NCBI GenBank assembly: GCA_016177405.1
Contig: JACOVG010000032.1
Location: forward strand, 1-58,626
DNA: 58,626 bases
Source: Candidatus Omnitrophota bacterium
Lineage (GTDB): Bacteria > Omnitrophota > Gorgyraeia > 1-14-0-20-64-10
Direction of reading: 5' to 3'
Shown: positions 31,132 to 58,400 of the stretch, piece after piece
How the letters are laid out: each line of letters starts with the position of its first letter
How positions within the stretch are numbered: the stretch's first letter is position 1
Translations under genes and position numbers: made by a program
Notes under the pieces: model-generated
Databases searched by the model: none
What the model saw: the letters and a program-made list of their open reading frames with translations, nothing else
What the model was told of the DNA's origin: nothing

Positions 31132-33501
31132 ATGAAGTTACGAGATGAGCACCCGGTAAGGCTTCTTTTTCTGGCGCTTAGCCTGTCGATCATCTACGTC
31201 GGGATACTGATCCCCGCCGGTTTCCTGGAAAGCGCGCGGCTCAAATCGTACGACGCCTATTGCAAAGGGCGCAATGGGCTCCTCGCCCCTCCGGCCCAGA
31301 CGCAGCAGATCCTCCTCATCACCGTGGATGAGGAATCCCAGCGTAAGCTGGGAAAGAAATGGCCCTGGGACCGCGGCGTTTTCGCCGAATTCCTCACCCA
31401 GTTGTCTCCACACGAACCCCGGATGGTCATTTTCGACTTCGCCTTCTCCGGAACCAGCGCTCTCCTCCACGATCAAGCCCTCGCCAAGGCGATTCAAAAA
31501 GGCCCGCCCACCATTCTCGCGTCCTACCTGGACCGGCATGGCGACCCCGTCTTTCCGCTGCCCCTGCTGACCGAAGCCGGAGCCTTGACCGGCATGATCA
31601 ACAAGCCCCGGGACGCGGATCATACCGTCCGTCGGCTGTGGGCCGCCATGAGGACCCCGATGCGGCAGGAGCCCCTCTACGCGATAGAGATCAAGGCGGC
31701 GGCGTTGATCCAAGGAATTCCGGACGACCAGATTCAACTGAACCGCCAGCTTGCCCTGGGAACCCGCCAGGTTCCCCTGGAGCCGCCTGGAGCCCTTCGC
31801 ATCAACTACCTGACCAGCCCTTCACAGATTGCCACCTTTCCATTCTGGAAGGTGATTCAAAACAAGGTCCCCGCTGAAGCCATCCGGGGGAAGATCATCC
31901 TGGTGGGCTCGGCCAGCGAGATCACCCACGACATCTATCCCACGCCGCTGGGCCTCATGCCGGGGGTGGTCCTCTCCGCCAACGGGATCCTGACCCTCTT
32001 GACCGAGCGCTTCATCCATCCGCTTCCTCTTTGGTCCTCCTTGGCTGCCAGCTTTCTGGGCGTGGCGGTAATCCTCCTGTGGACCTACGGGAGCCGGTTC
32101 TGGCCGGGGCTCCTGGCATCCTTAGCGGGCATGGGGATCGCCTCCGGCCTGGGATTCCTTTTGTTTACCCTCGGCTTTCAGGCCGAGTCCATGAGCATCG
32201 TCTTCCTGGGCCTTGGGGCCTGGATGATCGGGGCGATGTACAAATATCTCCTGCTGGCCAAGGCGGCCTTGGCGCTCCACCGTCAGGCGATCACCGAACC
32301 GGTCAGCGGCGTCTTCACCGGAACCTTCTTTAAACTGCGCCTGGAGGCCTCCTGGACGCAGGCCCAGAAGGGCAGGGGCCATTCGCTTTCCCTCCTCTTG
32401 ATTCAGACAACGCCCTTGGCTTCCAGGGTTCAAGAAAAGTCCTGGGAAGAGGCCAAGGCGCAGACCCGGTCTTTCTCCTCCTGCCTGCAGAGGCTCCGGC
32501 CGCCCAATTCCCTGGTGGGAACTCTTTTGGATGGGACCTTCGGGATGCTGGCGCCTCATCTGTCCTTGCCGAAGGCCCAGGAGCTTGCCCAGCGGCTCAA
32601 GGAAGAACTCCAGGCTCAAGTCCCCGGGAAAGCGGCCATCGGCCTGGCCTGCACAGGGGCCGCCTCTTTCTCCGGCCCGGAGCAGCTGCTGCGAAGCGCC
32701 CAAGCCGCCTTGACCAGGGCCTGGGAGAACCTGGGGTTCAACATCGTCGTTTACGATCCGTCCGTCGACCAGGTCAGGGCCGTCGAGGAAAAAGCGGGTG
32801 CCCAAGCTCAAACCTCCGGCCTCTCCTATGTCGCCTCGGAGATGGAGGAGAGAAACCGGGCCCTGGAAAAGGCCCTCTCCGAGCTTAGGACGGCTCACCA
32901 GGAGCTCGAGTCCACTTTTCTGGATGTCACCAAAACCCTTGTCATGGCCATGGAAACCAAGGATGTTTATACCGCGGGCCACCTGGAGAGGGTCTCCCGC
33001 TACGCCACCCGGCTGGCCCAAGCCCTTCAATTACCCAAGGAGGAGGTGGAGGCGGTCCGGGAGGCGGCCCTGCTGCATGACATCGGCAAGATCGGCCTGC
33101 CCGATGAGGTCCTTCATAAGGTGGGCAAGCTCACCGAGGAGGAGATGGGGGTGATCAAACAGCACCTGGCCATCGGCGCCAAGATCCTGGAGCCGATGAA
33201 ATTCTTCAAATCGATCACCACCCTCATCTACCACCACCACGAATGGTACAACGGCCAGGGCTACCCCCACGGCCTGGCGGGCGACTTCATCCCGGCCGGC
33301 GCCCAGATCATCACCATCGCCGATTCCTTTGACGCCATGACCACCCACCGCGGCTACAACAAGCCCCTGTCCCCTCAAGAAGCCACCGCCGAACTGAAGA
33401 GAGGGGCCCACACCCAGTTCAATCCCGTTTACGTTGAGAAGTTCGCCGAATTGATCGCCCTGGAAGGCCCCCACTTGGCAGGTTACGCTCCTCCCTCCTG
33501 A
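31132..33501 (+). CDS. CHASE2 sensor protein with degenerate GGDEF-like region and C-terminal HD-GYP
   Basis: CHASE2-like N-terminus plus TM helices; EPVSGVFTGTFFKLRLE...LLDGTFGMLAP; LLHDIGKIGLPDEVL...HHHEWYNGQGYPHGL...ADSFDAMTTHRGY. Confidence 0.85.
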   Translation: MKLRDEHPVRLLFLALSLSIIYVGILIPAGFLESARLKSYDAYCKGRNGLLAPPAQTQQILLITVDEESQRKLGKKWPWDRGVFAEFLTQLSPHEPRMVIFDFAFSGTSALLHDQALAKAIQKGPPTILASYLDRHGDPVFPLPLLTEAGALTGMINKPRDADHTVRRLWAAMRTPMRQEPLYAIEIKAAALIQGIPDDQIQLNRQLALGTRQVPLEPPGALRINYLTSPSQIATFPFWKVIQNKVPAEAIRGKIILVGSASEITHDIYPTPLGLMPGVVLSANGILTLLTERFIHPLPLWSSLAASFLGVAVILLWTYGSRFWPGLLASLAGMGIASGLGFLLFTLGFQAESMSIVFLGLGAWMIGAMYKYLLLAKAALALHRQAITEPVSGVFTGTFFKLRLEASWTQAQKGRGHSLSLLLIQTTPLASRVQEKSWEEAKAQTRSFSSCLQRLRPPNSLVGTLLDGTFGMLAPHLSLPKAQELAQRLKEELQAQVPGKAAIGLACTGAASFSGPEQLLRSAQAALTRAWENLGFNIVVYDPSVDQVRAVEEKAGAQAQTSGLSYVASEMEERNRALEKALSELRTAHQELESTFLDVTKTLVMAMETKDVYTAGHLERVSRYATRLAQALQLPKEEVEAVREAALLHDIGKIGLPDEVLHKVGKLTEEEMGVIKQHLAIGAKILEPMKFFKSITTLIYHHHEWYNGQGYPHGLAGDFIPAGAQIITIADSFDAMTTHRGYNKPLSPQEATAELKRGAHTQFNPVYVEKFAELIALEGPHLAGYAPPS

Positions 33502-35626: not shown

Positions 35627-36301
35627 TTACAGATTTGAAGCGGGCGAGGTTTCCAGGGAGAGCTTCCCAAGATTTTTCAAGGGACACCGGTGGCATTTGG
35701 GATGGGTTCGACAGAGGTTTTTTCCGAGGGCGACGATCAAGGCGTGATACTCGTTAAAGTAAGAGGCCTTGTGAGGAAGGTTCTCCATGAAGAGGGATTG
35801 GATCTCCTCGTACGAAGCCTTCCAGGATACCCAGCCATGCCGGGCCATAAAGCGCCTGGTGTAGGCATCCACCACGAAAATCGGTTTCTCCAAAGCGTAG
35901 AGGAGAATGCTGTCGGCCGTCTCGGGCCCCACCCCGTGGAGCGCCAAAAGCTCCACCCGCAGCCCATTCAGCGGGAGGCCCCGCATCCGACCAAGCGCCC
36001 CGCCATAATGCCGGTTTAGATATCGGATGAAACCCTTTAATTTCTTCGCCTTTTGGTTGAAGTAGCCGGAGGAGCGGATGAGCCCGGCCAGTTTTCTCCG
36101 AGGCAATCTCTCCAACTTGCGTGGGTCAAGAAGATGCCCCGCTTTCAACCGCTCCACAGCCTTGGAGGCATTGGCCCAGGCGGTGTTCTGCGTCAGGATC
36201 GCCCCCACCGCCACCTCAAAAGGGGTTTCTCCGGGCCACCAATGCTGCGCTCCAAAAACGGCGAAGAGCCTCCGGTAGATGGCCCGAAGCGTTCTCTTCA
36301 T
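35627..36301 (-). CDS. HhH-GPD DNA glycosylase (endonuclease III/MagIII-like)
   Basis: LALHGVGPETADSILLYALEKPIFVVDAYTRRF; partial Fe-S cysteine set CRTHPKCHRCPLKNLGK. Confidence 0.85.
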   Translation of the reverse strand: MKRTLRAIYRRLFAVFGAQHWWPGETPFEVAVGAILTQNTAWANASKAVERLKAGHLLDPRKLERLPRRKLAGLIRSSGYFNQKAKKLKGFIRYLNRHYGGALGRMRGLPLNGLRVELLALHGVGPETADSILLYALEKPIFVVDAYTRRFMARHGWVSWKASYEEIQSLFMENLPHKASYFNEYHALIVALGKNLCRTHPKCHRCPLKNLGKLSLETSPASNL

Positions 36302-38718
36302 GCCGGACGAAGGGTCATCCTGGTCCAGCTTTGGCCCACCGAGATCCGCACAGAAAGCGGCGGCGTCACAGAAACCGCTTTTTCCATCTCCTCCCGCGCC
36401 AGTCCAGACACCCTCTCCTCCTCCGGCTCTGGAAGTTCCAGGAGAAAGCCATCCGGCAGGAGAAAGATCACCTTCGCTTGAAACCCTTCATCCCTCAAGC
36501 GCCGGCTCACCCTTAAAAGCCCAAGCTTGATGACCTCCGCGCAGGAACCCTCCAGGGCCGTTTCCACCGCCTCCTCTTCAGCGGCCTGACGCAAGACGGG
36601 GTTGGCGCTGTTGATCTGCGGCAGGGCCCTTTCCCTTCCCAGGAAAAAGGTCCTCACCTTCCCTTCCCTCTTGGACTGGATCAGGAGGCTTCTGACAAAC
36701 TGGCCGGGATCCTTCCCGCTGGAAGCCAGCAGGCGGCCCTTCAGATCAAGATATTGGGCCTCCAGAAGAAGGCTCCCGGAGGGGGCCCGCGCCAGCCCCT
36801 TCAAGCCAAGATTCCATGAGCCGTTTTCCTCTTCAGAAAAGAACCGGCTCACCCGGATCCTCCCGGTCCCTGTGGCGGCCTGGTGGACCCCCAGGTAGAA
36901 GCGCCCTGTCTCGGGGTGGGTGTCCCTGGCCAGGACCGCGAGCCGTTCCTTGAGAAATCTTTTCCCCTCCTGGTAGTCCAGCAACTTCCCAACCGCCGGT
37001 TCACTAACGGCCGCCTTGGCCAGGGAGCTTCGGCTAAGGGAGGGCTGCTTGGCCCGGGTTTGATGGGGCAGCCGTATTCCTAAGCGCTGGGTCAAGACGC
37101 GCCGAATCTCTTTGGGAGAATCCAGGTCGAAGCGTTCGCCGACCGACTCAAAGATCTCCTGGGCAAGCCGCCCAAGCCGCTCCTGTGCCTCGCCCTTGAC
37201 CCTCTCGGCCTCCGCCAGGTCCACGGGCAGGCCTTCCGCTTCAACCCCGGAGAGAACCTCAACCAACGGCATCTCCACCTCATGAAAGATCCGCCCAGGC
37301 GCTCCGGCCGAGAGCTCGGGCAAGAAGCGCTCGTAAAGCTGAAAGGTGACATCGGCATCCTCGCAGGCATACTCGGCCACCCGGTCGATCTCGACGTAAG
37401 CCAGGCTTTCCTTATCGCCGGCCAGCTCCTTGAAAGGGATCATCTTGAACCCGAGGTAGGCCAAGGACAGGTCGTCCAGGGAGTGGCTGCGCCGGTCGGG
37501 ATGGATCAGATGGGAAGCCACCATCGTGTCAAACAGGGGCCCGGACACCGGAAGGCCCGCGTTTCCAAGGACCGCCAGGTCGAACTTGATGTTCTGCCCC
37601 GCCTTGACCCTGGAGGCATCGGCCAAAAGGGGCCCCAGCACCGGCCGGATCTCCTCCAGGGTTAGCTGCGCCGGAGCGCCGGCATAGACGTGCCCCACCG
37701 GAAGGTAAAAAGCCTTCCCCGGCCCGACCGCCAAGGAGATTCCCACCAGCCCCGCCCGCTTCACATCCAAACCGGTCGTCTCCGTGTCAATCCCGAAGGC
37801 GGCCGTTGACCTAAGAATTTCCGCGGTTTCTTTAAGATCCTCGGCCGTCAAAATCGTCCGGTAGGAAGTCTTATAAAGGTGGGCATGAACCAGGAGATCG
37901 GACAGGAGATCCGAGAACCCCGCCTCGGTGAACTGCCGGGTGACCTGTTCGGGCTCGGCCTCCGAGAGAACCAGCCGGTCCAGCAGATCCCGGCCGATAA
38001 GGGATGACTCGCAAACAATCGCCCGGCCCCTTCCCTGCCGGATCCGCTCTCTGGCTTCCCCCAACGCCTTTGCCAAGGCGGGGGGAAGCTCTTCCAGAGC
38101 CCCGAGGATTTTCTCGAGGCCCCCATATTGGGCCAAGAGCTTGGCGGCCCGCTTGGGACCGACTCCCTTGACGCCCGGAATCCCCTCCGCGTCATCCCCG
38201 ACCAAGGCAATCCTGTCGGGAATCTTTTCAGGCGGCACACCAAAGACCTTCAGGACCTGGTCCGGATCAAAACGGAGCTTTTCCCTGGCCGGATTAAGCA
38301 AGGTCACGTGAGGCCCGACCCATTGGAGGAAAACAGAGCGGGTGGTGACCAGCAAGGCGGGCATCCCCTTGCGCTTCGCCTGCTCCAGCAAGGGGAGGGC
38401 CAGGCCGGCCGCCGCGCAATCCCTGAACTCCAGGACTGGAATTCCCCCAACCGCAAGGAGCCTTCGGATCAGGGGAAGCTCTTTGGCAAGGTCGGCAGGC
38501 ATCTGGGTGGACCCCGCCTTGAGCTTGCCGTCGAAAAGAACGCCGACCCGCTCCGGCTTTTCCGTCTTGATCAGCTTTAGAACAAGGGCGATGAGGCGAT
38601 GGGCCGCCGACCGAAACCGTCCCTTCGCCCCCAACCGGGGCGAAACCGCGTAGTGGCACCAATTGGCGCAGGAAGGGGCGTCAACCAGGAGCAGCATTTC
38701 GCCTTCGCTTCCCGGCAA
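36298..38718 (-). CDS. DNA polymerase I-like protein: degenerate 5' nuclease, intact 3'-5' exonuclease, degenerate/truncated polymerase
   Basis: Exo motifs GIDTETTGLD, GQNIKFDLAVL, YACEDADVTF; polymerase-like LLLEAQYLDLKGRLLASSG and INSANPVLRQAAEEEAVETALEGSCAEVIKLGLLRV; ATGA overlap with the glycosylase gene. Confidence 0.85.
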   Translation of the reverse strand: MPGSEGEMLLLVDAPSCANWCHYAVSPRLGAKGRFRSAAHRLIALVLKLIKTEKPERVGVLFDGKLKAGSTQMPADLAKELPLIRRLLAVGGIPVLEFRDCAAAGLALPLLEQAKRKGMPALLVTTRSVFLQWVGPHVTLLNPAREKLRFDPDQVLKVFGVPPEKIPDRIALVGDDAEGIPGVKGVGPKRAAKLLAQYGGLEKILGALEELPPALAKALGEARERIRQGRGRAIVCESSLIGRDLLDRLVLSEAEPEQVTRQFTEAGFSDLLSDLLVHAHLYKTSYRTILTAEDLKETAEILRSTAAFGIDTETTGLDVKRAGLVGISLAVGPGKAFYLPVGHVYAGAPAQLTLEEIRPVLGPLLADASRVKAGQNIKFDLAVLGNAGLPVSGPLFDTMVASHLIHPDRRSHSLDDLSLAYLGFKMIPFKELAGDKESLAYVEIDRVAEYACEDADVTFQLYERFLPELSAGAPGRIFHEVEMPLVEVLSGVEAEGLPVDLAEAERVKGEAQERLGRLAQEIFESVGERFDLDSPKEIRRVLTQRLGIRLPHQTRAKQPSLSRSSLAKAAVSEPAVGKLLDYQEGKRFLKERLAVLARDTHPETGRFYLGVHQAATGTGRIRVSRFFSEEENGSWNLGLKGLARAPSGSLLLEAQYLDLKGRLLASSGKDPGQFVRSLLIQSKREGKVRTFFLGRERALPQINSANPVLRQAAEEEAVETALEGSCAEVIKLGLLRVSRRLRDEGFQAKVIFLLPDGFLLELPEPEEERVSGLAREEMEKAVSVTPPLSVRISVGQSWTRMTLRPA

Positions 38719-40447
38719 TCCAGGCCATGAGGGGGCCCGGCTCCAGGGTATTCAAGAGAACCCTCTTGGACACCCAGGCCCGGCGGGCGATCGAAAGACC
38801 GGTCTCGATCCCTTGAAGCTGATCCAGGGAATGGGTATCTGTGGACAAAACGAGCATCGCCCCGGCCTCCTGGGCTCTCCGGGCCTCCAGGTCGTTCAAG
38901 TCCATCCGCTGGCTCGCGCAATTGATCTCAAGCGCCGTGGGCCCCTGGCAGGCGGCGCGAATCACCTCCTCGAAATCCCACTCCACAGGATCCCGCACGC
39001 CGCGCAAGCGGGTGGTGGGATGCGCCAGGATGCTCACGTAGGGACTGCGCAGGGCCCGGATCACCCGCCGGGTCATCACCGCCTTGGACTGGCGGAAGGA
39101 CGAGTGGACCGCGGCAATCACGCAATCGAGCTTCTGGAGCACCTCATCCGGGTAGTCCAGACGGCCGTCCGGGAGGATATCCACCTCCGCCCCCATCAAG
39201 ATTCGGAAAGGGGCCAGGCGCTTGTTCAGCCTCCTGACCTCTTCCCGTTCCTTAAACAGCTCCGGCACCGACAACCCCCCGGCTATCCGGAGAGACCTCG
39301 AGTGATCCGAAAGGACCATGTATTGGTGGCCGCGGGCCCGGGCGGCCCGGGCGACCTCTTCGATCGGGTGGTGGCCGTCGGACCAATCGGAATGGATGTG
39401 GAAATCCCCTTTCAGATCCTTCCTCTCAACAAGTTTTGGCAGTTTGCCGTTTCTGGCGGCGTCCGTCTCGCCGGCGTCTTCCCGAAGCTCCGGCGGTATC
39501 CACGCCAGCCCCAGCGCCCGGTAAACATCCTCCTCCTCGCGGCCTGCGACCTTGCGCCCGCCCTTAATCTTGAAAACCCCATATTCGTTGACCGTCAGTC
39601 CCATCCGGTTGGCCAGGCCTCGGATGGCGATGTTGTGCTCCTTGGATCCGGTGAAGTAGACCAGGGCCGCCCCATAGGAATCCGGTTCCACCACCCGAAG
39701 GTCCACCTGAACCCCTTGGGCCGTCCGGATGCTCGATTTGGTCAGACCGCGGGCTTGGATTTGCGCGGCCAGGGGCAGCTTCACAAACCACTCCATCACC
39801 CGGGCCGGATGAGTGGAGGCGATCAGAAGGTCCAGATCGCGGATCGTCTCCTTTCGACGCCTCAGGGAACCGGCCACGCAGATCCGCTCGATCTCCCGGC
39901 AGCCCTTCAGGCGCTTAAGGACCTCCTCCGAGAGGGCCAGGGCCTCGGCCAGGGGCATTTGCCCCTGACCCGTTTTGAGCAGCCTGATCCCCCGAAGAAT
40001 GTTCTCCTCCTTCTTCTCCCGAAAGCCAGGCAGGGTGCGCAGCTTACCTGCCTTTACGAGGTTCGCGAGCTGCGCGACCGATTTCACCCTGAACCGGTCG
40101 TAGAGCAGTTTGGCCGTCTTGGGACCTACGCCGGCAATCGAGAGGAGATCCGCCAAGCCGGGAGGGATCTTCCGGGTGAGCTCATCGAGATACTGGAGGC
40201 GTCCGGTTTCTATGATTTCCTGGGCCTTGAGGGCCAGATCCTCGCCAATCCCCGGAATCTCGCGCAGGGCGCCCCGCTGGGCGACCGCCTCAATGGGCTC
40301 GGTGAGCGAGCGTAAGTTCAGGGCCGCCCGGCGGTAGGCCCGGATGCGGAAGGGATTTGCCCCTTTGAGCTCCAGCAGGTCGGCGATCCGCTCAAAGGTG
40401 TCGGCGATGGGCAGTTGCTTCAACCTTGTCTCCGACGCGAAGCCCAA
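38681..40447 (-). CDS. polX: DNA polymerase/3'-5' exonuclease PolX (Pol beta + PHP domains)
   Basis: CVAGSLRRRKETIRDLDLLIAS; GDFHIHSDWSDGHHPIEEV; ILAHPTTR; STDTHSLDQL. Confidence 0.95.
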   Translation of the reverse strand: MGFASETRLKQLPIADTFERIADLLELKGANPFRIRAYRRAALNLRSLTEPIEAVAQRGALREIPGIGEDLALKAQEIIETGRLQYLDELTRKIPPGLADLLSIAGVGPKTAKLLYDRFRVKSVAQLANLVKAGKLRTLPGFREKKEENILRGIRLLKTGQGQMPLAEALALSEEVLKRLKGCREIERICVAGSLRRRKETIRDLDLLIASTHPARVMEWFVKLPLAAQIQARGLTKSSIRTAQGVQVDLRVVEPDSYGAALVYFTGSKEHNIAIRGLANRMGLTVNEYGVFKIKGGRKVAGREEEDVYRALGLAWIPPELREDAGETDAARNGKLPKLVERKDLKGDFHIHSDWSDGHHPIEEVARAARARGHQYMVLSDHSRSLRIAGGLSVPELFKEREEVRRLNKRLAPFRILMGAEVDILPDGRLDYPDEVLQKLDCVIAAVHSSFRQSKAVMTRRVIRALRSPYVSILAHPTTRLRGVRDPVEWDFEEVIRAACQGPTALEINCASQRMDLNDLEARRAQEAGAMLVLSTDTHSLDQLQGIETGLSIARRAWVSKRVLLNTLEPGPLMAWIAGKRRRNAAPG

Positions 40448-41198
40448 ACCGTTTGGCCGCGGAGCCGCGGTTTATGGCAATCTCCAGAAATCCTCTGCTG
40501 CCGATCACTGCCAGGGCCGCGCCCCTGGGAACCGCGCCGTAAGAAGGCTGAAGGCCGTGCGCCCGCGCCCCCTTGGCCCGGATCTTGAGGCTCCCCTTCC
40601 CTTCCAGCCGCCGGATCAAAGAAACCGGAAGGTTGGTGACGGCGCTTCCAAAACGGTCCAGATAGATCACCTCACCCTTCAAGCGCCTTAAACCCTCCCA
40701 CCGGGGTTGGGGACTGTCCAGCCGGACAATGCGCCTCACGCGGGGCCCCAACCGGCTGGGGGCAAGCCCTTTGGAAAGGTGGGCCGCCGCCGGAGCGAAG
40801 ATGTCCCTCCCCTGAAAGGTTCGGCCGATCGGTTTTAAGGCGTAGCGGCGATTGGAGACCTCGAAGATCTTGGGGTCACGGACGTCCGACAAGATGCCGC
40901 TTAAAAGTCCGTTGTCCGGCGCCAGAAAAAGGTGGCCGCCGTGGGCCGCGCACAAGATCTTCCTTCGGGAACCCACCCCCGGATCCACTACCGCCGCATG
41001 AATGGTCCCCTTGGGAAAGTACCGCCAGCTCCACCGGAGGAGCCAGGCGGCCCGCCGCACATCACCGGGGGAAACCTCGTGGCTAAGATCAATCACCCGG
41101 GCCTTGGGATTCAAGCCGAGAATGACCCCCTTCATCACGCCCACATACTCATCCTTCAGCCCGAAATCGGTCAGCAGGGTGATCGGGCGGAATTTCAC
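40392..41198 (-). CDS. S-adenosyl-L-methionine hydroxide adenosyltransferase family protein (DUF62)
   Basis: ITLLTDFGLKDEYVGVMKGVI; VVDPGVGSRRKIL; APDNGLLSG. Confidence 0.9.
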   Translation of the reverse strand: MKFRPITLLTDFGLKDEYVGVMKGVILGLNPKARVIDLSHEVSPGDVRRAAWLLRWSWRYFPKGTIHAAVVDPGVGSRRKILCAAHGGHLFLAPDNGLLSGILSDVRDPKIFEVSNRRYALKPIGRTFQGRDIFAPAAAHLSKGLAPSRLGPRVRRIVRLDSPQPRWEGLRRLKGEVIYLDRFGSAVTNLPVSLIRRLEGKGSLKIRAKGARAHGLQPSYGAVPRGAALAVIGSRGFLEIAINRGSAAKRFGLRVGDKVEATAHRRHL

Positions 41199-41201
41199 AG
41201 C

Positions 41202-42314
41202 CTAGAGGGTTCGGCTTAGGGGGGTGTAGGTGAGATTCAGGGCCTGGGCCAGGGACCGGTAGGTGACCTTGCCGTGGATCACGTTGACCCCTCGCGCCAG
41301 CAAGGGATTCTCCTTCAGGGCGCGGGGGATCCCGTGGTTGGCCATCTCCAGGACAAAGGGCAGGGTGGCATTGGTCAAGCCGTAGGTGGAGGTGATTGGA
41401 ACCGCCCCGGGGATATTGGTCACGCAGTAATGAACGATGCCTTCCTCCACATAGACCGGCTTGGCGTGGGTGGTGGGCCGGGAGGTCTCGGCGCATCCGC
41501 CCTGGTCAATGGCCACGTCCACGATCACGGAGCCGGGCTTCATCTTCTTCAGCATCCAGCGGGGGATGAGGATGGGGGAACGCGCGCCGCGAATCAAGGC
41601 GCAGCAAAAAACCAGGTCCGCCTGGATGATCCTCTCGGCGATGTTGTGCTCGTGCGACATCAGAAACGACACGTTCTTGGGCATGATGTCTTCCAGGTAG
41701 CGCAGGCGGTCCAGATCAACGTCCATCACGGTCACCTCGCCGCCAAAACCGGCCGCCACCTTGGCCGCGTTGGCGCCGACCACCCCGCCGCCCAAGATCA
41801 GGATGTTGGCGGGCGCCACGCCGGGAATCCCGCCCAGCAGGATTCCCTTGCCCTTCGTGGGCTTTTCCAGGTACTTGGCTCCTTCCTGCACCGCCATCCT
41901 GCCGGCCACCTCGCTCATGGGAATCAGGATCGGAAGTCTCCCCTGGGCATCCTCGACCGTCTCATAGGCGACACAGGTCACCTTGCGCTTCATCATGGCC
42001 TGGGCAAGACCGGTGTTGGCCGCGAAATGAAAAAAGGTGAAGACGATCTGCCTGGACTTCAGCAGGGGATACTCCCGGGGCAACGGCTCCTTGACCTTGA
42101 GGACCAGGCGGGCTTCCTTAAAGACTTGCTGAGGCGAGCGGACGATCTTGGCGCCGGCTTGTGCGTAGGCCCGGTCTGAAATGTTGGATCCTTCCCCCGC
42201 TCCGCTTTCGACCAACACGGTGTGCCCCGCCCGGGTGAGGCTGGCCACCCCCGCCGGTACCGCCGCTACCCGGTACTCATCCTCCTTGATCTCCTTCGGA
42301 ACCCCGACAATCAC
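41202..42314 (-). CDS. ald: alanine dehydrogenase
   Basis: VIVGVPKEIKEDEYRVAAVPAGV; SDRAYAQAGAKIV; GGGVVGANAAKVAAGFG; GTG start overlapping the PilZ stop (GTGA). Confidence 0.94.
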   Translation of the reverse strand: MIVGVPKEIKEDEYRVAAVPAGVASLTRAGHTVLVESGAGEGSNISDRAYAQAGAKIVRSPQQVFKEARLVLKVKEPLPREYPLLKSRQIVFTFFHFAANTGLAQAMMKRKVTCVAYETVEDAQGRLPILIPMSEVAGRMAVQEGAKYLEKPTKGKGILLGGIPGVAPANILILGGGVVGANAAKVAAGFGGEVTVMDVDLDRLRYLEDIMPKNVSFLMSHEHNIAERIIQADLVFCCALIRGARSPILIPRWMLKKMKPGSVIVDVAIDQGGCAETSRPTTHAKPVYVEEGIVHYCVTNIPGAVPITSTYGLTNATLPFVLEMANHGIPRALKENPLLARGVNVIHGKVTYRSLAQALNLTYTPLSRTL

Positions 42315-42667
42315 GAGGAGAGCATCCTTTCCAGGACAAACTGGGCGATGCGGCGACGGTCGGTGGGCTTGATCCGGGAGAAAAAGACAGCCGTCAAATA
42401 AGAGCGGCAAGAGGCCGCCCGAGCAGAACGGTCTTTCCTCACGACGACCCCCGCGCACCGGATGGCCACGGGGGATCGGCCATTCCCAGCCCGCGGCAGG
42501 ACAAAGGAGACGTTGAGCCGGGTCAGCAAGGGCAGTGACTTGCTTATCCTGAACAGGGCTCCTCCACAGCTTAAGTTCCGGGTTTCCGCGGTGAGGACCC
42601 CTCTGCCTGCTTTGACCTGGCAGAGGAGAGCTTCGGCAACGCGGGGGTATTTACGCCGCTCCATCAT
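42311..42667 (-). CDS. PilZ domain protein
   Basis: MMERRKYPRVAEALLCQVKAG...ETRNLSCGGALFR; ATGA overlap with upstream hydrolase. Confidence 0.85.
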   Translation of the reverse strand: MMERRKYPRVAEALLCQVKAGRGVLTAETRNLSCGGALFRISKSLPLLTRLNVSFVLPRAGNGRSPVAIRCAGVVVRKDRSARAASCRSYLTAVFFSRIKPTDRRRIAQFVLERMLSS

Positions 42668-52001: not shown

Positions 52002-52433
52002 TTAAGCCTTTACCTTGTACGTGATCCAGAAAATATCCTCTTTAACCTGCTTGACTGAAGGATCGCTTGCTTTAAGCTCTTTGCGGGTGTCCTTCTGTTC
52101 CTTCTTGCAAAAGGGACAGTGTTTTGGTGCGCCGCGTGTCAACCAGTCTTCAGTCCTTATCAGGTGGCCTCCACATGAACTGCATGGAGGCAAAGATTCC
52201 AAGATTAGTTTCCACCCTTCGCTGTTCTTCAGGCCCTCTTTCCTACGATCCCAGACGGGATCATTAAACGCGTTATACCAGAAGAGCGCCTGACACCTCT
52301 CACATTCAAGGCAGGCTACGTCCGTGTAAAGAATGGTCGAATCAAAAGTAACCTCATGGGATTTGTCGCAATCTTGACACTGCCGAACCGCCTTGTAAGC
52401 GGTCCATTCTCTGCGATCAACCTCATATCCCAT
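52002..52433 (-). CDS. zinc-ribbon protein with four CxxC motifs (candidate immunity protein)
   Basis: CQDC, CLECERC, CSSC, CPFC; TGATG overlap with the giant toxin-like gene. Confidence 0.7.
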   Translation of the reverse strand: MGYEVDRREWTAYKAVRQCQDCDKSHEVTFDSTILYTDVACLECERCQALFWYNAFNDPVWDRRKEGLKNSEGWKLILESLPPCSSCGGHLIRTEDWLTRGAPKHCPFCKKEQKDTRKELKASDPSVKQVKEDIFWITYKVKA

Positions 52434-55400
52434 CAGGGTGCCACCTTATTGAATTCCTTGATCAATTCCTCTCGGAGTACAACCACATTATTAACCGACC
52501 CATTTATGTCGGAAGGGGCTACAATCTTCCCCAGATCTGATGCTCGAGTTGCCGTGTCCCCCAAAGATCTAGAAACTTGCTCGGCTGGCAGGGTGTCGAG
52601 GGTAATTCGCCTGCTGTCCTTGAGCGCAATTTCATAAACGTCGTACTCAGCCCCAGGGTTGCGTCTAAGAAATTCTGAGACTGCCACGTTCTTGTCTTTT
52701 GAAGTGTACAAGACCTTGGTATCGAGCGAATTAAACCGGCCTTCAGCCGTGCTGAAACGCATCGGATTAGAAGTGCCTTTTGGAACTGCCCGGTAGACAA
52801 CCTCTGTTGCCTCGTCGGCACTATGGACGGCACCCTTGACGACAGAGTTGCCGGCTTTAAATTCCCAGGCGGTGCGGGTGAGCTTGAGCTCGCCCTGACC
52901 CACATCATATACCTTGCTGCCGATGCGGAAGAAGTTTTTGATGGAACCCCAGACGCGATCCAGACTACGGGCTGCGGTGGGGACATCGCCCACGATGCCG
53001 GTGGCTTTGCTGGCGACCTGCAAAGATTTCCCAAGGCCTTTGGTGGCGAGACCCACCGCAGGAAACAGACCAAAAGCCCTTAGGCCATCTTGAAGCAGGT
53101 ACATTGTGGCAGCACCGTAGTGGCCTTCTGCTGCAGCTTGTTTGGCCTGCTGGATGCCGACGCCGATCCTTAAGTCGTCCCCGAAGAGATCTACCGCGGC
53201 GGCGATGGTATGCAGCGTTCCTCCCGCCACCCAATTGCCATCGTCTGCGAAGGAATCGCCCTGGGTCTTCAGCCAGTTGATTCCCTTTTCCATGGCGCGG
53301 CTTAAAGCGGTAGATGCCTGCTCCTTGCTGACGGTGAGGGTCGCCTGTTCCTGCTGGAGGCGTGCTTGCTCGGCCGGCAGGGCATCCGGATTTTCAATCA
53401 AGGTCTGGAGTGTCGGCCCGAATGATTTGAGCATTGCCTCGGCGTTCTCAGCCCCCACCAATTTGGTCAGCTCCTCTTTCACCACAGCGAGAAATTGAGG
53501 CGCTGCTTGTTGAGCAGCTGTTCTTTGCTCTGGGGTCGGGTCATGCAGCGGCGGAACTGCCGCTTCCATAGCCTGAGCCAGGGCATGGAGCTTCTCAGGA
53601 GAAAGGTCGCTGAAGCCCTGTGCCTGGATCTTGGCATCCACGATCTGGCCGCTGGAATAGATGATGGTTGGCCGCAGTGCGATTTCGCGAGTGATGTCGC
53701 CGTCCAGGAGGCCGAACTTGTAGTCCTCGGAGAGGTCCACCACCTGGCCTTCGATGAACCGCCCATCGGGGCTAACGCGAACGGTGTCGCTGCCTTCTCT
53801 GGGGCTGACGAAGTAGCGGGTCTTGCCGGTGGCGGTATCTCGCCCCTCGATCAGGACGATATTGCCGCCGTAGACGGTGTATTCCTCGGTGATGCCACTG
53901 GGCGTATTGACCAGCACCTTGCCGTTGACGAGTCCAAAGCGGCCTTGCTCGTCTAGGCCAAAGCTTTTGTCGTTCGGGTTCGGCGATGAAATCTCCTTGA
54001 CCAGCCCGCGCGTGGGATCGAAGTAGGAACGAGCCAGGACAGCGTCGGTCGTCGCGTCGAGATACAGCTTGCTGTTCTCTTTGAAAGTGACCTCGGTGGT
54101 AAGTCGGCCGTCCTCCAGGGTGACCGCCTTGGCGTTGCCCAGCAGGAAGTCGGCGATGCCGCCCAGCTTCCAGATGGACTCGATGGCGTCCCGCTGGAAG
54201 ATGCTGCTGGCGTAGGTTTCAAGGGCGGTGGTGATGCCACGCTCCCGGATGATGTTGGAGAAGTCGTTGATCTTGGCAAGGTAGGTCGCCTGCTGGACGG
54301 GGTTGTAGGGTGCGTTGGGGTCGTAGCCGGTGCCCGGGGTGGAGAAATTCAGGACGGACTTCTTGAGGGATTCCGAGACCCCCTTGAAAACGTTGCCCTC
54401 ATACTTAAAGGCGCCGGAGATGGCCCCTGAAATGACGTTGGCCGAGAGGGCCTGGGTAAAGGGATCCAAGCCGATCTCATCGCCCAAGAGATCTATACCG
54501 AGGCTGGTGGCTCCATGGAGCAGGCCGTCACTGATGGACTTTGTGATGTCTGTGGCTTTCCCGCCTGCGGTGCCGACGGTGACCGCGGATTTAATCGGCA
54601 TACCGGCCAATTGGGAGATTCGCGGGTCGAGGCCGATGGATTCGCCGAGTTTCTGGATGCCATAGAAGGCGAGCTCGCCGGCGAGGGTGGGGGCAAGCTG
54701 GGTCTTGAGGGTGGTGCCGAGGGCATCGAGACCAGGGGGGATCGGCTTCATAACCACCTTCCCTGCTGAGTCGTAGACGACGTTGCCGGCATCGTCCAGC
54801 TTGGGGACTTGGGTGCCTACGGTTAGGGAGCCCACGATGGAGCCGACCCCGATGGAGGCGATCCCGGCCAGGGCGGGGTCGAGGCCGGCCTTGACAAGGC
54901 CCAGTTGGGTGCCGGCCACAGCGGTGGAGGTGAGGGCGCTGGAATAATCAAAGCCAAGGTGGAATGACCCTCCCGAGAAACTCTGGACGCCGCCGGAGGC
55001 GAAGGAACCGGCGATGCCGGCGATGCCAGGATCAACCCCCAGGGCCTGGAGGCCGGTGGAGACACCAAGGTTGACGGCAGTCTGCAGGGCGAATTGACCC
55101 AGGCCTTGGAGGGAGAGGCCTCCGGAAAGGCCGGCCATCATCCCAATACCTTGGAAGAGGGTCTCAAAACCAAGGGCGAATTGGCCGCCAAGGAGGTAGG
55201 TGAGGCCTCCGAGGGCATGGCCGAGGCCGCTGACCATTGTTCCCAGGCCGTTGAAGATGAAGCCCAAGGGGCCCATGGCGTTGCCCAGGGCGGTAAAGGC
55301 AGCTCCGATCGTGTTAACGAGAGTGGCCAGGGCCCCGGTGATGAAGGAGATGGCGGTGGAGATGGCGGAGACGACCCCAACGGCCAGCTTGGCGAGGAAG

Positions 55401-58400
55401 ATAAAGAACATGAAGAAGAAGCTTCCGGTGATGCGCTGGGCTTCTGGGTCGGTCAGAACCTGGTAGGCGTGGGGAGGAGCGCGGGAAGAGAGGATGGCTC
55501 CCTGCCAGACCTGGAGGAACTCCGCTTGGGTCATGGTGAGGGTTTGGCCGGTGGGGCCGGCGTTGGGCTCCCGGTAGGTGACGGTGCCGTCGGCGGCAAT
55601 CACGGTCACCAGGATGTAGTGATTGCCGTTGATGTGAGCGATGACGGGAGAAGCGATTCCCGCTTGCGCGGGAATGACAAGGGCGCGTAAGTCCTCAAAG
55701 GAGACGCGGGAGGGGGTGGCGGAGGCGCCATGAAGCTTGGCGACGCGCTGGAGGGCGAAGAGGGACAGTTCCATGTCCCCGGTGGTCTTCGGGTTGATGG
55801 TGCCGGTCAGGATGTCCACAAGGAGGGTTTGGACAGCGAGGGTGGTGAAATCTGGCGATTGCTTCGTCCCGCCTTCGGCGCTCCTCGCAATGACCGCCTC
55901 GATGTATTCCTTCAAGGGCAGGAAGGCGGAGTAGCCGAAGTGGAGGGAGTTGGAGTCAAGCCAGGCCAGGATGCGGTCAATATCTGAAGCGGAAAGGGGG
56001 ACGATTTCGGAGGGGGTGAGGCCGAGGGAAGAGATGAGATTTCTCGCTTCGCTCGAAATGACGGAAGTATCGCCGGTGGCAATGACGACGTAATCCTGCA
56101 ACCAGGAGGCGACGCGGCGCTTGATCTCGGAGACGTCGGAGGCGCGGGGGGCGTAATCTGGCAGGACGCGGATTCGCTGGGTGAGATCGGCAAGGTCCAC
56201 CTTGGCCGAGGGATCCGAGCCATAGCGGCTGTAGAGGCGCTCCACCTCCTGGGTGACTTCCTGCTCGGAGGGATCCCGGCCGATCGTGTCCCGGTAGGCG
56301 CGGATCAGGATGGTGGTGAGCTCCTGGCGGAGAATCGCTTTGGCGAGCTCGACCTGCTTGACATGGATCTCGGTGAAGGCCTGGATGGTCTGGGACTCCA
56401 CCTCCTGGCGGACCGATTCCACCTGGGCGTTGAGCTGTCCCAGGGCCTCGGCGTATTGGTTGTCCAAGTTGGACAAGGCGTCTCGGACTTGATTCATCCC
56501 GGCGCGAATCTGGTCCATCGCTTGGGATTTGGCACTCTTGCCCGCCTTGCCCTTGGCTTTCATGGCTTCGACATCGTTGAGCTTGTGCTGGAGAGAAGCC
56601 TGTTGATCGGTGAGCTGGGCGCGGGCGGCAGAAGCTCGGTTGGCCAGGTCCTGGTAGGCAACTCCCTTCTGGCGGGCCAGCTCCTCCAGGGCCTGGGTGC
56701 GGCGCTGGATCACCTCGGCCTCGGCATTGGTGATCTGGTCGAAGATCTCCTGGCGAGCGCCGATCAGGGTGGTCTTGGTGAGGCGGCCGGCGGCATCGTA
56801 GTCAAAGGTGGTGGTTATGCGGCCGGAGGAATCCAGGGTCAGGATGGGGCGGCTCTCCTCGTACAGGGTGACCATGCCACTGGCAAAGGTCTGGGTGAGA
56901 AGCTGGCCTTCGGCGCCAAACTCCCGCTCGATGACGGCGTCATCCGGGAAGCCCTCGGTGAGGAGCTGTCCCTCTGGAAGGGCCAGCCGGGCCAGACGGT
57001 GGATGGTGACCTGGGCGCCGCGCTGTTCGTTGAAGGCGGACAGATCAGGCACCTGGATCTGAAGACTCTGCTCCCTGCCCTGCAGGTCTGTGTAGTGGAT
57101 CGTCTCGGGCTTGAGACTACGGAGGGTCTCGAGCTGGTCCTGGGCAAGGTCTTTGGCGTAGGAGACCTCCCAGCGGGTGCCGGATGGTTCTTCGATGGCG
57201 ATGAGGTTGTTGTCTGAATAGGTGCGGATCGCGCCGGAGGAATCGGTGATGCGGGTGAGAGATTGCTTCGCCCCACCCTCGGTGGGGCTCGCAATGACGT
57301 CAGAGTAACTGTAGGTGAAGGTTTCGCGGGGTTTGCCCTGGTAGGTGACTACGGCGCGGGAGAGGACGGGGCTGTGGTCACTGTGAAGCGAAGCCAAAGC
57401 AATCTCGTCTTGAGATTGCTTCGCGCCTTCGGCGCTCGCAATGACGGACTCCACTTCGCCTCCTCGCAATGACAAGGTGCCCTGCTCCACCAGGCGGCGC
57501 AGGGAGGCACGGTCGGCGGGGAGCTCCAAGGAGCGCAGCTGGGCGGGGTCGCTTAAGAGGAGGAGCTCTGCCGGGCCTTCGATGAGCTGGGCGTTGTCAA
57601 AGTAGGCCGAGGCCTCGAAGCCGTTCACCTTGATCCAAGCGTTGAAGTTGATGCTTCCGGTGGTGATGGTGTGGGTGATGGTGAGGAGGTGCCACTCGTT
57701 GTCCCCGGGATGAAAGGCAGAGAAGTCGTACTCGTTGGAGGAAAGGCCGATACGGGCGGCGCCCGGACGGTCGGACTTGACCCAGACCTCCAGGGTGAAG
57801 GTTCTTCCGGCAAGGGCCCGGACCTCCGGGGAGTAGGGGGGAAGGATGTCCTGGTAGATGAAGGAGTAGTCGCTTCCGTCGGAGCCGTTGGCCAGCTTGA
57901 GAGGCGGGGTGCCCAATTGAACGGAGGAGGTTTCCTGGCGGACATGGGACGGATCGGTTTCCTGGGAGACGGAGTTGCCGGAGCCGCCGCTCCATCTCCA
58001 GCCATCGGGGGCCTGCTGGCCTCCCTGGGACCAGCTTTCGAAGGAGGGGTCAGCCAGGGGATAGGGCGAGAGGGAGTCCGGCTTGGTCAGGTAGCGGCCA
58101 TCCGGGGTGGTTAAGCCCACCACCTGCCAGGGCTGGACCGAGGAAGCCCGCGCATAGTGGATGACGGCGCCGCTCGCGAGGGTTTGGGCGGCCCCAGCGG
58201 CAGTGGCGAGCGCCTCATTTAAGGGATCGGAATAACCGGCGGGGTCGGTGGTGTACTCGTAGGCGGTGACGGCGCCGTCGGGGTCGGTCTGGGAGATAAG
58301 CAGGCCCTCGCGGTAGCGCTTGGTGAGGCCGGTGGCAAGTTCCTTGATAACGGTTATTTCGCTGCTGTCCGCGTCGAACTCGTAGGCGTAGTCGTAAAGG

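What the first reader, a model, noticed from the sequence alone, without database searches (positions are those of the whole stretch)
36298..38718. PolA paralogue reduced to a 3'-5' exonuclease: 5'-nuclease and polymerase active sites destroyed but ORF intact and coupled to PolX and Nth
Seen in the translation: 5'-nuclease acidic motifs are replaced (EADD position CAAAG, TGDKD position TTRSV, GDSSDN position GDDAEG) and the helical arch is missing. Exo motifs I-III (DTE, NIKFD, YACED) are intact. Polymerase motif A DYSQIELR is QYLDLKGR, the fingers/O-helix (RRxAKxxNFGxxYG) are absent and motif C HDE is PDG, yet the ATGTGRI, LPxINSxNxxLRxxAExxAxxTxxxGSxAxxIKL scaffold remains. An 800-codon ORF without stops, with an ATGA overlap to a glycosylase gene and directly following polX, argues against a decaying pseudogene. 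Hypothesis: a dedicated exonuclease/scaffold that proofreads for PolX in base-excision repair.
Basis: partly seen in the sequence, partly recalled or inferred. Interest (0 to 1): 0.75.

Follow-up and report, generated by a model that had tools for sequence, protein, structure and literature searches.

The report
DNA polymerase I copy, exonuclease only
One uncultured bacterium carries, inside a DNA-repair operon, a second copy of DNA polymerase I in which only the 3'-5' "eraser" domain is still conserved, while its normal DNA polymerase I has lost exactly that domain's active site.

Summary
The ORF at 36298-38718(-), probable ATG start at 38697 (799 aa), is a full-length Pol I homologue. Its 5'-nuclease and polymerase active sites are destroyed and its fingers are deleted, but all five DEDDy residues of the 3'-5' exonuclease remain. 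Leave-out counts show one-sided selection. The exonuclease domain keeps 26 of 30 comparable invariant positions, as E. coli does (26/31); the other domains keep 37-44%. Branch length in the exonuclease domain is ordinary (1.8), but 5.9-7.8 elsewhere. The genome has a canonical polA with the mirror-image defect: its DEDDy residues are all gone, as in all seven relatives of the family with a near-complete polA.

The proposed tie to PolX is weaker. In three relatives polX and the glycosylase gene are directly adjacent, so this gene most likely entered an existing operon in one lineage. PolX has its own intact PHP nuclease, and the "Nth" resembles a monofunctional MagIII-type glycosylase. No copy was found in 386 genomes of the phylum. 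The exonuclease domain groups with Pseudomonadota and Geobacter, hinting at horizontal transfer, but a host origin is not rejected.

Most likely this is a dedicated 3'-end-trimming exonuclease in repair, possibly replacing proofreading lost from Pol I. Activity and partner are unproven.

The parts
36298..38697 (-). PolA-derived exonuclease gene (799 aa from ATG 38697; ORF open from TTG 38718)
38038..38694 (-). 5'-nuclease domain remnant, acidic metal site lost, helical arch shortened
   Evidence: Pfam PF02739/PF01367; residues; 24 of 54 invariants kept
37312..37863 (-). 3'-5' exonuclease domain, DEDDy complete (D304, E306, D373, Y443, D447 of the 799-aa protein)
   Evidence: PF01612; 26 of 30 invariants kept
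36850..37209 (-). thumb and proximal palm remnant (first piece of DNA_pol_A)
36322..36702 (-). distal palm remnant (second piece of DNA_pol_A); fingers deleted between the pieces, motif C PDG
38681..40447 (-). polX upstream in the operon: canonical polymerase and PHP active sites intact; its end overlaps the exonuclease gene by 17 nt
35627..36301 (-). HhH-GPD glycosylase downstream, ATGA overlap; MagIII-like, monofunctional by its missing lysine
40392..41198 (-). SAM hydroxide adenosyltransferase, conserved upstream neighbour in relatives
41202..42338 (-). alanine dehydrogenase, conserved upstream neighbour in relatives

Best explanation
The gene encodes a dedicated 3'-5' DNA exonuclease derived from a whole Pol I. 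Shown: the DEDDy active site and the exonuclease domain's invariant positions are kept; the 5'-nuclease and polymerase sites are gone; the genome's own Pol I has lost the same exonuclease site. Inferred: the protein removes mismatched, damaged or displaced nucleotides from 3' ends by two-metal hydrolysis. Without fingers and the O helix it cannot hold a dNTP or the primer in a polymerising position, so a bound 3' end would go only to the exonuclease site, and the thumb/palm remnant at most helps bind DNA. Its operon with polX and a MagIII-like glycosylase points to base-excision or gap repair, where it would trim ends before or after synthesis by the exonuclease-deficient Pol I and by PolX. 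It probably entered the polX-glycosylase operon in this lineage, perhaps by horizontal transfer.
For: DEDDy intact in this protein, absent in own Pol I and the seven family Pol Is compared. Invariants kept: exonuclease 26/30 against E. coli 26/31 and own Pol I 9/28; 5'-nuclease 24/54, thumb 14/37, palm and fingers 20/52 with 22 more deleted; Fisher p 1.9e-6 (using the counts). Branch lengths: exonuclease 1.79 (E. coli 1.93); 5'-nuclease 6.5, thumb 7.8, palm 5.9 (E. coli 1.85, 1.73, 1.09). Klenow match E 1.4e-73, exonuclease aligned throughout. Stop-free 799 codons (chance about 5e-11 in random sequence of this composition), coding-type base composition close to its neighbours, overlaps on both sides. 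polX-glycosylase adjacency in G002, G004, G007.
Against: Single genome, no orthologue, so no dN/dS and no independent confirmation. No activity data. The structural model is poor (mean pLDDT 57, four sequences). About 40% of the invariants in the dead domains remain, so those may simply be slower-decaying baggage. Origin by transfer is unproved: p-AU for a host-phylum clade 0.079 and 0.254 with more taxa.
Confidence: 0.6

Rival explanations
1. Trans-proofreader for the genome's exonuclease-deficient Pol I: the two PolA copies have split the work, one polymerising and cutting flaps, the other editing.
For: Mirror-image domain conservation of the two copies. No DnaQ-type RNase_T domain found in this genome.
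Against: The whole family has lost Pol I proofreading residues, and no other family genome has this gene, so the function is dispensable there. About half of bacterial Pol Is lack proofreading (PMC12926913). If the gene was transferred in, it is not a duplicate that split.
Confidence: 0.2
2. Proofreader or scaffold for PolX in base-excision repair.
For: Operon position with overlap to polX and a glycosylase.
Against: PolX has an intact PHP nuclease site; PHP gives 3'-5' exonuclease and AP-endonuclease (PMC6616362, PMC9226535). The polX-glycosylase pair lives without the gene in relatives.
Confidence: 0.12
3. Decaying, non-functional pseudogene of a transferred or duplicated polA.
For: Two active sites lost, a deletion of the fingers, very long branches outside the exonuclease domain.
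Against: Decay would not spare one domain: 26/30 invariants and a normal rate in the exonuclease domain; no stop or frameshift; operon overlaps.
Confidence: 0.08

Closest known systems
DNA polymerase I, PolA1 group (E. coli Pol I / Klenow fragment)
   Same: Same three-domain order, DEDDy exonuclease, alignable from end to end
   Different: 5'-nuclease and polymerase active sites lost, fingers deleted; scores below the NCBIfam PolA cut-offs (436 of 720, 315 of 600)
Noncanonical prokaryotic PolX (PMC9226535)
   Same: Polymerase homologue with degraded palm and fingers and a conserved 3'-5' exonuclease
   Different: X family with a PHP nuclease; here A family with a DEDDy nuclease
PolA2 / APEX of Actinobacteria (PMC12926913)
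   Same: Second A-family copy with one enzymatic function lost
   Different: Opposite loss: APEX keeps the polymerase and loses the exonuclease, and has no 5'-nuclease domain
Inactivated B-family polymerases of archaea and the Pol epsilon inactivated polymerase-exonuclease module (PMC2669801)
   Same: Inactivated polymerase homologue kept in evolution
   Different: B family; in the Pol epsilon module the exonuclease is inactivated as well
RNase D and RNase T type DEDD exonucleases
   Same: Same nuclease superfamily; RNase T trims 3' ends in DNA repair (PMC3942315)
   Different: Not derived from a Pol I; this genome has a separate RNase D-like gene at C2

Membership tests
DNA polymerase I (PolA1) | Polymerase catalytic aspartates D705 and D882 and the O-helix RRxxKxxNFGxxYG | tested here: not met
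   D705 is Q, the O helix is deleted, E883 is G; D882 remains
DNA polymerase I (PolA1) | 5'-nuclease acidic metal-binding cluster | tested here: not met
   E113, D115, D116, D138, D140 lost and D188 is E; D13, D63, D185 kept
DNA polymerase I (PolA1) | DEDDy 3'-5' exonuclease residues | tested here: met
   All five present
DNA polymerase I (PolA1) | Common descent and domain order | tested here: met
   PF02739, PF01367, PF01612, PF00476 in order
Active 3'-5' DNA exonuclease | Measured metal-dependent 3'-5' degradation | not testable with these tools
   Needs purified protein
Endonuclease III (downstream gene) | Catalytic lysine of the bifunctional glycosylase/lyase | tested here: not met
   E at the lysine position (GVGPETA), aligned with MagIII 1pu6; nth model 69 of 211.7 bits
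MagIII 3-methyladenine glycosylase (downstream gene) | Score over the NCBIfam equivalog cut-off | tested here: not met
   Best family, 98 bits against a cut-off of 192; so MagIII-like only
Noncanonical PolX (upstream gene) | Degraded polymerase site | tested here: not met
   DLDLLI and VDLRV aspartates present; PHP ligands present; full-length match to T. thermophilus PolX

The most novel reading that the evidence does not exclude
A bacterial lineage whose Pol I functions are divided between two proteins: an exonuclease-dead Pol I and a polymerase-dead, flap-nuclease-dead Pol I that proofreads in trans from within a base-excision-repair operon, an A-family counterpart of exonuclease-only PolX.
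Probability: 0.2. Interest if true: 0.7.

Novelty: new variant of a known kind. Interest (0 to 1): 0.5.

Why it matters
Catalytically dead homologues kept by selection are known in the X, Y and B polymerase families. A survey of bacterial polymerases (3,070 complete genomes, PMC12926913) lists A-family groups that lose the exonuclease or the 5'-nuclease; the sections read here describe none that loses the polymerase. An A-family case that keeps only the exonuclease, beside a Pol I that lost it, is a natural test of whether proofreading can be supplied in trans in repair synthesis.

Tried and rejected
Searched for orthologues in all 9 family genomes, 11 of the order, 386 of the phylum, genome contigs (only canonical-looking PolAs) and, for related PolAs, phages and plasmids: none with this form was recognised. 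Viral-contig scans failed because the search machine gave no answer. AlphaFold with four sequences gave a poor model, so no fold search was run on it. The whole-length tree was uninformative because of the 5.83 branch; the exonuclease-only trees suggest but do not prove transfer. Looked for clamp-binding motifs with a simple pattern: none. Rejected 'replicative proofreader': DnaE carries what reads as a full PHP ligand set. Rejected misread coding: the frame is open and conserved in the standard code.

Full report
What is there. The window is contig C28 of a 1.70-Mb draft genome, 93% complete. The minus-strand ORF 36298-38718 is a full-length relative of DNA polymerase I: Pfam finds the two 5'-nuclease domains, the 3'-5' exonuclease domain and the polymerase domain in order. 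The polymerase match comes in two pieces because the fingers are missing. Against E. coli Klenow the exonuclease and thumb align without a break (E 1.4e-73), and the alignment resumes past the fingers.

Active sites. In an alignment with E. coli Pol I and 39 other PolAs, the five DEDDy exonuclease residues (E. coli D355, E357, D424, Y497, D501) are all kept. In the 5'-nuclease the acidic cluster and the arch arginines are lost, with three aspartates left. In the polymerase, motif A D705 is Q, the O helix is deleted, R841, N845 and Q849 have become E, and motif C HDE is PDG.

Is it selected? A fair count uses positions invariant in 28 exonuclease-proficient PolAs of the host phylum and tests sequences left out of that set. 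Exonuclease domain: this protein 26/30, E. coli 26/31, Geobacter 29/31, the genome's own Pol I 9/28. 5'-nuclease: 24/54 against 52/57 for E. coli. Thumb: 14/37 against 31/37. Palm and fingers: 20/52, plus 22 deleted, against 69/74. Branch lengths tell the same story: 1.79 in the exonuclease domain (E. coli 1.93) but 6.5, 7.8 and 5.9 in 5'-nuclease, thumb and palm (E. coli 1.85, 1.73, 1.09). A decaying gene would not spare one domain. Inference: purifying selection acts mainly on the exonuclease domain. dN/dS could not be computed because no orthologue was found.

The mirror image. The genome has a second, canonical polA at C3:2926-5577(-), 883 aa, with intact 5'-nuclease and polymerase residues, but with all five exonuclease residues replaced. 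The seven other family Pol Is compared have lost the set too. Loss of Pol I proofreading residues is common: about half of bacterial Pol Is (PMC12926913). So this genome holds one PolA that apparently can no longer edit and one that apparently can only edit.

Where it sits. The order alanine dehydrogenase, SAM hydroxide adenosyltransferase, polX, HhH-GPD glycosylase is shared with relatives. In G004, G002 and G007 polX and the glycosylase are directly adjacent; in G006 a contig ends there, so it cannot be judged. The gene is therefore most simply an insertion in this lineage, though parallel losses are not excluded. It fits tightly: its ATG lies inside the end of polX (17-nt overlap) and its stop overlaps the glycosylase start as ATGA. 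Its third-position G+C is 0.76, near polX (0.79) and the glycosylase (0.72).

Neighbours. The PolX is canonical, matching T. thermophilus PolX end to end, with polymerase aspartates and PHP ligands present. PHP domains of bacterial PolX have 3'-5' exonuclease and AP-endonuclease activity (PMC6616362), so PolX has less need of an outside proofreader. The glycosylase's best family is 3-methyladenine glycosylase (98 bits, below the cut-off of 192) and its best solved structure MagIII 1pu6; the lysine of Nth is E.

Other nucleases. No RNase_T/DnaQ domain was found in this genome, whereas five of the nine family genomes searched (this one included in the nine) have one; the draft is incomplete. DnaE shows what reads as a complete set of PHP ligands, so replicative proofreading is probably covered. 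An RNase D-like gene is present at C2.

Origin. No such form turned up in 386 genomes of the phylum. In the exonuclease-domain tree the protein groups with Geobacter and Pseudomonadota (99/97), outside the host phylum, with Geobacter the nearest at 45% identity. Forcing it into the host phylum is not rejected (p-AU 0.079; 0.254). Horizontal transfer is the better reading but is not shown.

How it probably works. Shown: one intact active site, two destroyed. Inferred: the protein takes frayed or mismatched 3' ends and hydrolyses them by the two-metal DEDDy mechanism (established for Klenow, from general knowledge); with no O helix it cannot hold the end for synthesis. In this operon it would trim 3' ends in base-excision or gap repair, most usefully for the exonuclease-dead Pol I. 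The closest parallel is the noncanonical PolX group, which lacks polymerase activity and acts as exonuclease (PMC9226535).

Verdict. Observation confirmed; interpretation partly supported; a new variant of a known kind. It remains a single genome with no activity data.

Noticed in passing
G000:C3:2926-5577(-) (L004) and the PolAs of G001, G003-G008: The Pol Is of this family compared here all lack the complete set of 3'-5' exonuclease residues, while many other families of the phylum keep them.
   Followed up: yes
whole genome G000: No RNase_T/DnaQ-type domain detected, although five of the nine family genomes searched (this one included in the nine) have one; DnaE's PHP ligands look complete.
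   Followed up: partly
window 35627-36301(-): HhH-GPD glycosylase called Nth is MagIII-like, lacks the Nth lysine, and its C-terminal cysteine cluster shows only three cysteines.
   Followed up: partly
window 52433-58123(-): 1896-aa protein with weak RHS-repeat, C39-peptidase and RES-domain matches, possibly a polymorphic secreted or RHS-type protein.
   Followed up: no
window 31132-33501(+): CHASE2 domain with an HD-GYP-type HD domain: an apparent sensor protein.
   Followed up: no
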